NCBI RefSeq assembly: GCF_001618955.1
Contig: NZ_LVYV01000001.1
Span: 124,001 to 188,000, forward strand
Direction of reading: 5' to 3'
DNA: 64,000 bases
Origin: Tardiphaga robiniae
GTDB lineage: Bacteria > Pseudomonadota > Alphaproteobacteria > Rhizobiales > Xanthobacteraceae
Both the position numbers and the translations under genes were made by a program. This document shows positions 44,676-47,361 of this stretch, one piece after another; position 1 is the first letter of the stretch, and each line of letters opens with the position of its first letter. The notes below the pieces were generated by a model. That model was not told the DNA's origin, ran no database searches, and saw nothing but the letters and a program-made list of their open reading frames with translations.

Positions 44676-45563
44676 ATGACCCAGTTTGACGGTGAGCTGT
44701 CGCCTCCCTTCGAGATCGTCGAGCCTGCCAACTGGCGCGCACCGATCATTTTCAATTCCCCGCATTCCGGCTCGGTCTATCCGGCGGAATTCCTCAGTGC
44801 GTCCCGCATCGACGTGACCGCGCTGCGCCGCTCGGAAGATTCATTCATGGACGAATTGATCGCCGGATTGAGCGATCGCGGCTTTCCGGTGGTCCGGGTG
44901 CATTTCCCGCGCTCCTATGTGGACGTCAATCGCGAGCCCTATGAGCTCGATCCGCGGATGTTCAACGGCCGACTGCCCAGTTTTGCCAATACCCGCTCGA
45001 TGCGGGTCGCGGGTGGCCTCGGCACGATTCCCCGGGTGGTCGGCGACGGCCAGGAGATTTACCGCGAGCGACTGGACGTCGATGACGCCCTCACCCGGAT
45101 CGAGGCGCTGTACAAGCCGTACCACCGCGCCCTGCGTCGCCTGATCAACAAGGCGCACCAGACATTCGGCACGGTGATCCTGGTGGATTGCCACTCGATG
45201 CCCTCGATCGGAATTTCCCGTGAGGAACCGCGCCGCCCGGACGTGGTCGTCGGTGACCGCTATGGCACCAGCTGCGCCACTATCCTGGCCGAGGTGGTCG
45301 AACACACATTCGGCGGCCTCGGCTATTCCCTGGGCCGTAACAAGCCCTATGCCGGCGGCTTCATTACCGAGCATTACGGCAACCCGGCCAGTGGGCTGCA
45401 TGCCATCCAGATCGAGCTGAACCGGGCGATCTATATGGACGAACGCCGCCGCGAGCGGACCGCCCGCTTCAACCAGATTGCTGCCGATTTCACCGTTCTG
45501 GCCGATGCGCTGGCGAAGATCCCGCTGGACAGCCTCGGCCCATTCCAGGCCGCCGCCGAATAG
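44676..45563 (+). CDS. N-formylglutamate amidohydrolase family protein
   Basis: A 295-residue zinc hydrolase family protein (HutG/N-formylglutamate deformylase fold). It shows IIFNSPHSGSVYPAEF with the metal-binding His, RSEDSFMDEL, YVDVNREPYELD, VDCHSMPS and FITEHYGNPASGLHAIQIELNR. The family splits N-formyl-glutamate to formate and glutamate in histidine breakdown, but hut genes are absent here, so another N-acyl amino acid could be the substrate. It is divergent from cpdR, with a 292-base gap. Confidence 0.85.
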   Translation: MTQFDGELSPPFEIVEPANWRAPIIFNSPHSGSVYPAEFLSASRIDVTALRRSEDSFMDELIAGLSDRGFPVVRVHFPRSYVDVNREPYELDPRMFNGRLPSFANTRSMRVAGGLGTIPRVVGDGQEIYRERLDVDDALTRIEALYKPYHRALRRLINKAHQTFGTVILVDCHSMPSIGISREEPRRPDVVVGDRYGTSCATILAEVVEHTFGGLGYSLGRNKPYAGGFITEHYGNPASGLHAIQIELNRAIYMDERRRERTARFNQIAADFTVLADALAKIPLDSLGPFQAAAE

Positions 45564-45956: not shown

Positions 45957-46132
45957 CCTCTGCGACGACGTGGACACCGGCTTGAGGTTCTCAGCCGAAT
46001 AAGTCTTGCTTGATGACTGACGTCGCAATGGGCCCGAGGCTGTCGGGGTGCCAGACGACGAACAGGCCAGGCGACACAAAGACAATTGCCGGCAGCCACG
46101 TCGGCACGCCGTGATGCAAAACTCCTCCGACA

Positions 46133-46221
46133 AGAAAAAAGGACCGCTTGCGATAGCAAGCGGTCCAAGTCTAGGGAGGAAACGCCCAAGGAGGGCAGCG
46201 ATAGCGCAAGCGCTACCGCAC
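46133..46221 (-). ncRNA. Candidate AbcR (alpha-r15) family small regulatory RNA
   Basis: A minus-strand intrinsic terminator (perfect 11-bp stem 46166-46141, then six T) stands in a 622-base gap with no minus-strand gene. Upstream of it the RNA would fold as stem-loop 1 (GUAGCGC/GCGCUAU), stem-loop 2 (GCCC-UCCUU-GGGC) and a single-stranded GUUUCCUCCCUAGACUU, then the terminator. Three stem-loops, with anti-Shine-Dalgarno UCCUU and CCUCCC in the loop and linker, are the hallmark of AbcR sRNAs, which repress ABC-transporter mRNAs in rhizobia, Agrobacterium and Brucella. Ends are predicted. It is convergent with flp. Confidence 0.65.
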
Positions 46222-46227
46222 CGCAAC

Positions 46228-46256
46228 AATATGCAGCCGCGACGCACCAAGTGCAA
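46228..46256 (-). promoter_or_regulatory. Sigma-70-type promoter for the small RNA
   Basis: On the minus strand TTGCAC (46256-46251), 17 bases, CATATT (46233-46228). The start would be near 46221, just before stem-loop 1. Confidence 0.5.
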
Positions 46257-46578
46257 GAGTTTTCGGGCAAATTTCCATGCAAATTTCGCATGGTGATCGC
46301 ACCGTTCAGGCATAGGCGTCATAATTTCTATAAGCAGAATCAATGCGATATAGAAATGACAGTAGCTTTGACCCATTTAAGGAATGATCTTAAATTCATT
46401 CTATTGGCCAATTTCTGATGCCGGACATCAGGAATCTTAGGGAAATCGCAACCCGATTCAGCGCCGTGGTTTAGGGGAATCGCAGAGAGATTTCGATCAC
46501 CGCAGATGCGAGTCGTTGCCCTGCGCTGTATAGGAAGCGACACGTCCCCATCCAGCAGCCGCAACAAAGGACCTCTCC

Positions 46579-47361
46579 GTGACGGTCATCGACTTCAACG
46601 CCTTCATTGGTCGTCTTGCGACCTCGTCGGGCGAGACCATCCTGCCGTTCTTTCGCACCTCGCTGAGTATCGACAACAAGAACAGCACCGATTTCGACCC
46701 GGTCACGGAAGCCGACCGCGCCGCCGAAGCGGTGATGCGCCGGCTGATCAAGGCCAACTTCCCCCAGCACGGCATTGTTGGCGAGGAATTCGGTACCGAA
46801 CGCGAAGACGCCGAATATGTCTGGGTGCTCGACCCGATCGACGGCACCAAATCCTTCATCTCCGGCTTCCCGATCTGGGGCACGCTGATCGCGCTGCTGC
46901 ATCGGGGCACACCGGTCTATGGCATGATGCACCAGCCCTATATCGGCGAGCGCTTCAGCGGCGACAGCGGCTCGGCGCGCTACCAGGGCGCCAACAACAC
47001 CACCCGCAAGCTTGCCGTGCGCCGTTGCGCATCGTTGAAAGATGCCACGCTGTTCACGACCAGCCCGCGGCTGATGAACGACGCCGATCGCGCAAAATTT
47101 CAGGACGTCGAAAAAGGTGTGCGGCTGACGCGCTACGGCGGCGATTGCTATTCCTATTGCATGCTCGCCGCTGGCCATCTCGATCTCGTCATCGAGACCG
47201 AGCTGAAGCCCTACGATATCGCAGCCCTGATCCCGATCATCACCGGCGCCGGCGGCGTGGTGACAACCTGGGAGGGCAAGCCCGCGCAGAACGGTGGCCG
47301 CATCGTCGCTGCCGGCGACCCGCGCGTGCATGAGGCCGCGCTGAAGATCCTCAACGCCTGA
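46579..47361 (+). CDS. hisN: Histidinol-phosphatase, inositol-monophosphatase family
   Basis: A 260-residue Mg-dependent phosphatase with the family signatures GEE (68-70), WVLDPIDGTKSF (metal ligands Asp85 and Asp88) and the C-terminal KPYDIAALIPIITGAGG. The IMPase-type HisN removes phosphate from histidinol phosphate, the penultimate step of histidine synthesis in many Actinobacteria and alphaproteobacteria. The start follows AAAGGACC. Its nearness to the N-formylglutamate hydrolase is usual in Rhizobiales. Confidence 0.85.
   Translation: MTVIDFNAFIGRLATSSGETILPFFRTSLSIDNKNSTDFDPVTEADRAAEAVMRRLIKANFPQHGIVGEEFGTEREDAEYVWVLDPIDGTKSFISGFPIWGTLIALLHRGTPVYGMMHQPYIGERFSGDSGSARYQGANNTTRKLAVRRCASLKDATLFTTSPRLMNDADRAKFQDVEKGVRLTRYGGDCYSYCMLAAGHLDLVIETELKPYDIAALIPIITGAGGVVTTWEGKPAQNGGRIVAAGDPRVHEAALKILNA

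What the first reader, a model, noticed from the sequence alone, without database searches (positions are those of the whole stretch)
46133..46256. Probable AbcR-type small RNA hidden in the flp-hisN gap
A textbook minus-strand terminator (46166-46141 plus six T) has no gene to terminate. In front of it are a -35/-10 pair (TTGCAC, 17 bases, CATATT), two further stem-loops, and unpaired anti-Shine-Dalgarno blocks UCCUU and UUUCCUCCCU. AbcR (alpha-r15) sRNAs have this architecture and repress ABC-transporter mRNAs in Rhizobiales. The window contains two importer operons whose mRNAs are natural candidates; the gltI ribosome site (GAGGAG) can pair with CUCCUU over six bases.
Basis: partly seen in the sequence, partly recalled or inferred. 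Interest (0 to 1): 0.75.

Follow-up and report, generated by a model that had tools for sequence, protein, structure and literature searches.

The report
MmgR-type small RNA near hisN

Summary
The minus strand at about 46134-46221 encodes a three-hairpin small RNA with a strong terminator and a promoter conserved in all 79 readable relatives. The family name is wrong: Rfam places it above threshold in RF00519 (suhB/MmgR, alpha-r8); alpha-r15 (AbcR) does not match there, nor above cut-off anywhere in this Tardiphaga-like genome. Testable alpha-r8 features are met: covariance score, single-stranded UUUCCUCCCU, terminator, and a neighbouring N-formylglutamate amidohydrolase gene. My addition: two boxes matching the published PhaR/AniA operator, 21 bp apart, cover the -35/-10 spacer and start site. 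Three of four phasin promoters and the phaR upstream region carry the box too. In a class sample, 42 of 65 alpha-r8 copies have a box of 19/21 or better (1.29 expected from shuffles). Likely mechanism: PhaR represses the RNA until PHB granules take PhaR up; the RNA then covers ribosome sites with its 10-mer. The gltI pairing is moderate; three of four phasins are ordinary; a LivK-like/enoyl-CoA-hydratase gene pair elsewhere pairs best. All regulation is inferred from sequence. A new member of a known kind.

The parts
46134..46221 (-). small RNA, alpha-r8 / MmgR family, about 88 nt (start inferred from the -10; end in the U run)
   Evidence: Rfam RF00519 match 46126-46203, 71.2 bits; fold z -5.9; 10-mer found in 79 of 79 readable relatives
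46251..46256 (-). -35 element TTGCAC
   Evidence: begins with TTG in 80 of 80 sequences; not listed by the generic scan
46228..46233 (-). -10 element CATATT
   Evidence: identical in 80 of 80 sequences
46232..46252 (-). PhaR/AniA-like box 1, core TGCGTCGCG 46246-46238, between -35 and -10
   Evidence: 20 of 21 positions of the published S. meliloti PhaR motif; core in 76 of 80 sequences
46211..46231 (-). PhaR/AniA-like box 2, core TGCGGTGCG 46225-46217, over the inferred start site; overlaps the 5' arm of stem-loop 1
   Evidence: 19 of 21 positions; core in 80 of 80 sequences
46198..46219 (-). stem-loop 1
   Evidence: fold; 99.0% of cells paired, 2 of 10 pairs with changes on both sides in 31 distinct sequences
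46183..46197 (-). stem-loop 2, UGCCC-UCCUU-GGGCG, anti-Shine-Dalgarno loop
   Evidence: fold; all 5 pairs invariant in 31 distinct sequences, hence no covariation information
46173..46182 (-). single-stranded 10-mer UUUCCUCCCU, the alpha-r8 pairing sequence
   Evidence: sequence; the same 10-mer is the pairing site of Caulobacter SisA (PMC12559287, passages)
46135..46166 (-). Rho-independent terminator: stem 46166-46141 and six T
   Evidence: 94.7% of cells paired, 2 of 11 pairs with changes on both sides
44676..45563 (+). N-formylglutamate amidohydrolase gene (FGase), the usual neighbour of alpha-r8 RNAs
   Evidence: Pfam PF05013 E 1.5e-75; FGase similarity in 77 of 80 hisN loci, 10 of 10 family loci and 25 of 29 class loci; linkage stated in PMC12559287
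45792..45956 (+). Flp/Fap pilin gene; incidental neighbour
   Evidence: Pfam PF04964, scanned without its start codon; found in only 13 of 80 hisN loci
46579..47361 (+). hisN / suhB-like inositol monophosphatase family gene, divergent from the RNA
   Evidence: Pfam PF00459 E 1.4e-57

Best explanation
This is the alpha-r8 (MmgR, RF00519) small RNA of a Tardiphaga-like bacterium: a free-standing trans-acting RNA that covers Shine-Dalgarno regions of mRNAs with its exposed UUUCCUCCCU block and so lowers their translation (pairing mode shown for the Caulobacter member SisA, inferred here). Its promoter carries two PhaR/AniA-like operators 21 bp apart, so PhaR should keep it off until PHB granules take PhaR up; the RNA then acts as a brake in the carbon-storage response, beside phasin genes that carry the same operators. 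Shown by sequence here: the RNA gene, family, neighbours, operators. Shown by others in S. meliloti: PhaR binds the mmgR promoter in vitro, and phaR loss raises MmgR. Inferred: transcription, PhaR control, granule titration and target repression in this organism.
For: Family: 71.2 bits against 41; one copy over cut-off in this genome; RF00519 over cut-off in 147 of 149 genomes of its taxonomic family (the two misses are 74% and 79% complete) and in 51 of 115 genomes of the class, own included. Anatomy: three hairpins, 10-mer, terminator; 4 of 26 pairs changed on both sides, exceeding 500 of 500 shuffles. FGase neighbour, the linkage described for the family. Promoter boxes of 20/21 and 19/21; cores in 76 and 80 of 80 sequences. 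The own genome has one phaR and four phasin-family genes; three of the four have two boxes each (19-20 of 21) within 120 nt of the first possible start, and phaR has three (18-19 of 21) within 260 nt. Class: 42 of 65 alpha-r8 copies have a box of 19/21 or better in a 75-nt zone; 1.29 expected from dinucleotide shuffles; 31 of 1109 other windows of the same loci. Five rearranged control motifs hit 0 or 1 of 29 promoters where the PhaR motif hits 20 (19/21 or better) or 21 (core); gltI upstream regions 0 of 11, LivK-like 1 of 17.
Against: No transcript data, and PhaR binding here is untested. Four relatives (L016, L017, L027, L028) lack box 1 although their genomes keep phaR; they keep box 2. 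In the class 23 of 65 copies have no box of 19/21, 21 of them in genomes that do have PhaR; and one genome without a detected PhaR (G240) still has a box. The promoter is TGC-rich: 24% of dinucleotide shuffles of the 80 promoter 29-mers hold the 9-base core somewhere. One covariation measure, the number of further pair types, shows no excess over shuffles (13 against 13.2). By pairing energy three of four phasins are ordinary; the fourth (L103, -13.1) has 4 of 47 window genes better, so the direct target is open. Box 2 overlaps the transcribed hairpin, so its conservation has two possible causes. The Caulobacter authors saw no conserved motif in the four sis promoters.
Confidence: 0.8

Rival explanations
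1. It is an AbcR (alpha-r15) RNA that represses ABC-importer mRNAs, gltI in the window among them.
For: Same general design: three stem-loops and two anti-Shine-Dalgarno blocks (PMC7143759, passages). The gltI ribosome site pairs with -14.4 kcal/mol and with -11.8 to -14.8 in 12 of 15 genus loci with a callable start, own gene included.
Against: No ar15 match at E up to 10 in the region; none over cut-off in the genome (without a positive control). RF00519 fits at 71 bits. The gltI pairing is interrupted by unpaired bases and falls to -6.2 to -9.6 in 3 of 15 loci, where the chosen start may also be wrong.
Confidence: 0.04
2. It is an alpha-r8 RNA, but its main job is uptake and catabolism of carbon sources, as for Caulobacter SisA, and PhaR merely supplies a carbon-status input (not exclusive with the best explanation). 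Best candidate targets are a LivK-like binding protein and the divergent enoyl-CoA hydratase gene of the same genome.
For: A 12-nt exact complement AGGGAGGAAACG before the start of the binding-protein gene (L106; -21.0) and AGGGAGGAAGCG right before the hydratase start (-22.1), both better than all 47 window genes; the one place in this genome where the exact 10-mer complement stands 2-11 bases before an ATG; pairing of -12 or better in 21 of 23 LivK-like loci of the family, own included. SisA represses TonB receptors and others through the same 10-mer.
Against: Strong Shine-Dalgarno sites look like targets of any anti-Shine-Dalgarno RNA. Of the 23 exact-complement places in the 18 genus genomes most stand before different genes; only four gene pairs recur among 19 proteins. 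In 2 of 23 LivK-like loci pairing is -10.9 and -4.7, the latter probably a wrong start. A genome-wide ranking was not possible.
Confidence: 0.45
3. The conserved block is not a free RNA but a terminator or attenuator belonging to a longer minus-strand transcript.
For: No transcript data exist here; a terminator could serve an unrecognised upstream transcript.
Against: Own conserved promoter directly upstream; 10-mer and loop invariant in 31 distinct sequences while the sequence further upstream diverges; full-length match to a family with a known 77-nt free transcript.
Confidence: 0.03
4. The promoter boxes are conserved for reasons other than PhaR (the hairpin in the RNA, or another regulator that reads the same dyads).
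For: Box 2 overlaps stem-loop 1; no binding data; 23 of 65 class copies lack a good box, 21 of them in PhaR-bearing genomes.
Against: Box 1 lies upstream of the inferred transcript; rearranged control motifs are absent or nearly so; phasin and phaR upstream regions of this genome share the box; the S. meliloti mmgR box binds PhaR in vitro (PMC12542648, passages).
Confidence: 0.15

Closest known systems
MmgR of Sinorhizobium meliloti (alpha-r8)
   Same: Rfam family RF00519, three stem-loops, PhaR box between -35 and -10 (passages of PMC7143759, PMC8401924, PMC12542648)
   Different: Here two boxes 21 bp apart (one is listed for mmgR); transcript predicted at 88 nt rather than 77; nitrogen control not tested
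SisA-D of Caulobacter crescentus (alpha-R8; PMC12559287, abstract and passages)
   Same: UUUCCUCCCU pairing block after a weak hairpin, terminator, FGase neighbour (sisA)
   Different: Four copies and a sponge RNA (CrfA) there; one copy over cut-off here, no sponge looked for. The authors report no conserved motif in the sis promoters, whereas 42 of 65 sampled class copies share a PhaR-like box
AbcR1/AbcR2 (alpha-r15, RF02345)
   Same: Anti-Shine-Dalgarno blocks and three-hairpin layout
   Different: No covariance match; S. meliloti AbcR1/2 are a tandem pair, here a single RNA
NmsR of Neisseria (RF02877)
   Same: Weak covariance match over the same stretch, 31.7 bits
   Different: Below its gathering score of 52

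Membership tests
alpha-r8 / MmgR / suhB (RF00519) | Covariance model score above the curated threshold | tested here: met
   71.2 bits against 41, whole model 1-77
alpha-r8 / MmgR / suhB (RF00519) | Single-stranded 10-mer UUUCCUCCCU downstream of a weak hairpin, and a Rho-independent terminator | tested here: met
   46182-46173 unpaired in the fold, hairpin 46197-46183, terminator 46166-46135; definition from PMC12559287
alpha-r8 / MmgR / suhB (RF00519) | Adjacent to an N-formylglutamate amidohydrolase gene (usual single copy) | tested here: met
   FGase at 44676-45563 with the small flp gene between; linkage stated in PMC12559287
alpha-r8 / MmgR / suhB (RF00519) | PhaR/AniA site in the promoter (known for S. 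meliloti mmgR; not known to define the family) | tested here: met
   Boxes 20/21 and 19/21 by sequence only
alpha-r8 / MmgR / suhB (RF00519) | Hfq binding, effect on PHB and phasin proteins | not testable with these tools
   Needs the laboratory
AbcR / alpha-r15 (RF02345) | Covariance model score above the curated threshold | tested here: not met
   Absent among matches up to E 10 in the region; best in genome 19 bits elsewhere, cut-off 40 (no positive control)
AbcR / alpha-r15 (RF02345) | Two CU-rich anti-Shine-Dalgarno motifs in unpaired regions of a three-hairpin RNA | tested here: met
   UCCUU loop and UUUCCUCCCU, but alpha-r8 has this too
AbcR / alpha-r15 (RF02345) | Repression of ABC-transporter mRNAs | tested here: inconclusive
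   Pairing energies only: gltI -14.4, a LivK-like gene -21.0
NmsR (RF02877) | Covariance score above threshold | tested here: not met
   31.7 bits against 52
SorY (RF02651) | Covariance score above threshold | tested here: not met
   19.5 bits against 111

The most novel reading that the evidence does not exclude
PhaR control is an old and general property of alpha-r8 RNAs: the RNA was wired to the PHB-granule sensor early in the Alphaproteobacteria, often through a tandem operator with 20-21 bp between the boxes, and serves as the post-transcriptional arm of the PhaR regulon in many families, not only in S. meliloti. In this lineage the arm reaches a LivK-like importer and a CoA-catabolic operon whose divergent start regions both carry the complement of the 10-mer.
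Probability: 0.5. Interest if true: 0.5.

Novelty: new member of a known kind. Interest (0 to 1): 0.3.

Why it matters
The RNA itself is the expected relative of a widespread family. What could matter is the operator. In the papers I saw, alpha-r8 function is documented in two organisms with seemingly different roles (PHB in S. meliloti, nutrient receptors in Caulobacter). A PhaR operator on about two thirds of the copies sampled in the class (42 of 65) would tie them together: the cell's stored-carbon level, read by PhaR, would set the amount of a general translation brake. This can be tested directly with phaR deletions in laboratory strains.

Tried and rejected
AbcR/alpha-r15 membership: rejected. 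Loss of box 1 explained by loss of phaR: rejected, all 14 genomes examined keep phaR, including the four without box 1; perhaps box 2, which remains, suffices. Phasin mRNAs as direct targets: not supported for three of four by pairing energy; one (L103) is comparable to gltI. Flp neighbourhood as meaningful: rejected, 13 of 80 loci. Extra copies of the RNA in this genome: 19 further matches, best 23.9 bits, below the cut-off of 41, not followed.

Rows dropped before counts: L068 (10 nt upstream of hisN) from the promoter and RNA counts; L026 (contig ends in the terminator) from the structure alignment; of 67 class copies over cut-off other than the window's own, two (L246, L258) without a recognisable seed; L188 without a callable start. 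In one search I gave 23 of the 52 loci fetched with the LivK-like query: most of the rest are distant paralogues of about 30% identity, but L132, L133 and L134 (92, 90, 56%) and nine loci (L164, L169, L173-L179) are also left out; an alignment had placed the first two wrongly. In one search the controls were 17 of those 52 and 11 of the 16 gltI loci. The class background of 31 of 1109 windows is uneven: 22 of 1015 in the 3-kb loci, 9 of 94 in the short ones.

Full report
What is there. The predicted fold is 5.9 standard deviations below 200 dinucleotide shuffles. A generic sigma-70 scan does not list the promoter, but the -10 hexamer is identical in all 80 sequences compared (79 relatives and the window) and the -35 begins with TTG in all 80.

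Whose genome. The nearest hisN proteins (97-98%) are of Tardiphaga robiniae LMG 26467, Tardiphaga sp. P9-11 and Bradyrhizobium sp. NFR13, followed by further Tardiphaga and Bradyrhizobium (the 80 best of 290). The assembly has 6.36 Mb in 56 contigs.

Family. In the window Rfam gives two hits above gathering score, a tRNA elsewhere and RF00519 (suhB, described as MmgR) here, 71.2 bits against 41. With E up to 10 on the 601 bases around it nine families appear, none of them ar15; the next best are NmsRb (31.7 bits, threshold 52) and SorY (19.5, threshold 111). In the whole genome ar15 reaches 19 bits at most, elsewhere (none of the 14 control genomes was over cut-off, so the model's sensitivity was not shown). 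A review notes partial homology of alpha-r15 to the SuhB model (PMC7143759, passages), which explains the resemblance.

Further membership evidence. The 10-mer is described as common to alpha-R8 RNAs, and in Caulobacter SisA it is the pairing site (PMC12559287, abstract and passages). That paper also says that most species carry one alpha-R8 copy next to a gene for N-formylglutamate amidohydrolase. The window has this gene at 44676-45563; similarity to it is found in 77 of 80 hisN loci, 10 of 10 loci from the family search and 25 of 29 class loci (the 80 were fetched through hisN, so hisN linkage is no finding in them; in the 29 class loci hisN similarity is found in 2). The flp gene is found in only 13 of the 80. 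In the taxonomic family 147 of 149 genomes have RF00519 over cut-off, with one to six matches at E up to 0.001; in a class sample 51 of 115, own included. This genome has one copy over cut-off.

Structure. In 31 distinct sequences (of 79) stem 1 has 99.0% and stem 3 94.7% of cells paired, with two pairs each changed on both sides; four such pairs exceed all 500 shuffles, and the covariation score is reached by 1 of 500, but the number of further pair types shows no excess (13 against a mean of 13.2). Stem 2 never varies and says nothing.

The promoter. A 2025 study of S. meliloti derived the PhaR (AniA) operator WNWDDNYGCRNYGCRNHHWNW, found it in the mmgR promoter and showed binding in vitro (PMC12542648, passages). 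In the window this motif occurs at 46252-46232 with 20 of 21 positions, inside the -35/-10 region, and again directly adjacent at 46231-46211 with 19 of 21. Seventeen places of 19 or better exist in the 64 kb, so two side by side in one promoter is unusual. The core of box 1 is kept in 76 of 80 sequences at the same offset and that of box 2 in 80 of 80; in two MAGs (L033, L069) box 2 reads TGCAATGCG instead of TGCGGTGCG, still a match, while most of the hairpin is also kept. Composition matters: 24% of dinucleotide shuffles of the 80 promoter 29-mers hold a core somewhere. Box 2 overlaps the transcript, so its conservation is not only that of a DNA site. Four relatives lack box 1 but have phaR.

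The same circuit in the same genome. There is one phaR and four phasin-family genes. Three of the four have two boxes each (19-20 of 21) within 120 nt of the first possible start, as described for S. meliloti phaP1 and phaP2; phaR has three (18-19 of 21) within 260 nt; the fourth phasin (L102) has none.

Class-wide test. I took every RF00519 match over cut-off listed for the class sample except the window's own: 67 copies, of which 65 had a recognisable seed. In a 75-nt zone upstream (95 to 20 nt before the seed) 42 of 65 have a box of 19/21 or better: 20 of 29 best copies and 22 of 36 others; counted from that table, 32 of the 48 genomes concerned have at least one such copy. Dinucleotide shuffles of the same stretches (200 each) give 1.29 expected; other windows of the same loci give 31 of 1109. 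Five rearranged motifs hit 0 or 1 of the 29 best-copy promoters; upstream regions of gltI loci give 0 of 11 and of LivK-like loci 1 of 17. Among ten high-scoring loci of the taxonomic family 9 have a box of 19/21 or better. Where two boxes occur (12 of 39 loci looked at) the two nearest the RNA lie 21 bp (8), 20 bp (2), 19 bp (1) or 17 bp (1) apart. Results against: 23 of 65 have no good box, 21 of them in genomes with PhaR; of three alpha-r8 genomes without a detected PhaR two lack the box but one (G240) has it. The Caulobacter paper reports no conserved motif among the four sis promoters. My literature searches listed no paper whose title, abstract start or read passages trace the PhaR box across the class. 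But I saw only listings for most of these papers, and no full text of the two most relevant ones (Lagares 2016, Ceizel Borella 2018), so the idea may already be partly in print; [quoted passage not shown]

Targets. The one place in this genome where the exact 10-mer complement stands 2-11 bases before an ATG is in front of a LivK-like binding protein (Peripla_BP_6), with 12 contiguous pairs and -21.0; the divergent enoyl-CoA hydratase gene has AGGGAGGAAGCG right before its start, -22.1. In the genus the pattern has 23 matches in 14 of 18 genomes, against 1 for the reversed pattern, but only four gene pairs recur among 19 proteins. LivK-like loci of the family keep -12 or better in 21 of 23 given. 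Because every strong Shine-Dalgarno site pairs with this RNA, this is a lead, not a result.

Conclusion. Shown by sequence: the RNA gene, its family, its neighbours, the boxes. Inferred: transcription start, PhaR repression, uptake of PhaR by granules, target repression (with Hfq, as in other members). The finding is a new member of a known kind; the likely general PhaR operator of alpha-r8 genes is the part worth a specialist's time.

Noticed in passing
L106 1313-1324 (-) and 1501-1512 (+) (own genome, contig C23): Divergent genes for a LivK-like binding protein and an enoyl-CoA hydratase (a thioesterase-family gene next in line), with AGGGAGGAAACG and AGGGAGGAAGCG just before their starts: best predicted targets of the small RNA found outside the window.
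   Followed up: partly
window 46275-46293: Inverted repeat CCATGC-GAAATTT-GCATGG, 18 bases upstream of the -35, similar in several near relatives (L010-L012) and only loosely in others; might be an activator site (NtrC activates mmgR in S. meliloti).
   Followed up: no
window 46136-46221: Sub-threshold match of the same RNA to the Neisseria NmsR model (31.7 bits, E 0.0045 in a 601-base search); distant kinship or convergence.
   Followed up: no
L016, L017, L027, L028: Four relatives have a rewritten -35/-10 spacer without PhaR box 1 but keep phaR and box 2.
   Followed up: partly
G240 (L262): Genome without a detected PhaR domain that still has a 20/21 PhaR-like box before its alpha-r8 RNA.
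   Followed up: no
G224, G206 (L203, L210, L225, L227, L228, L229, L237): Genomes with three or more alpha-r8 copies over cut-off, in G206 three in a row on contig C7 (54432-55030); all seven of these copies have a box of 19/21 or better.
   Followed up: partly
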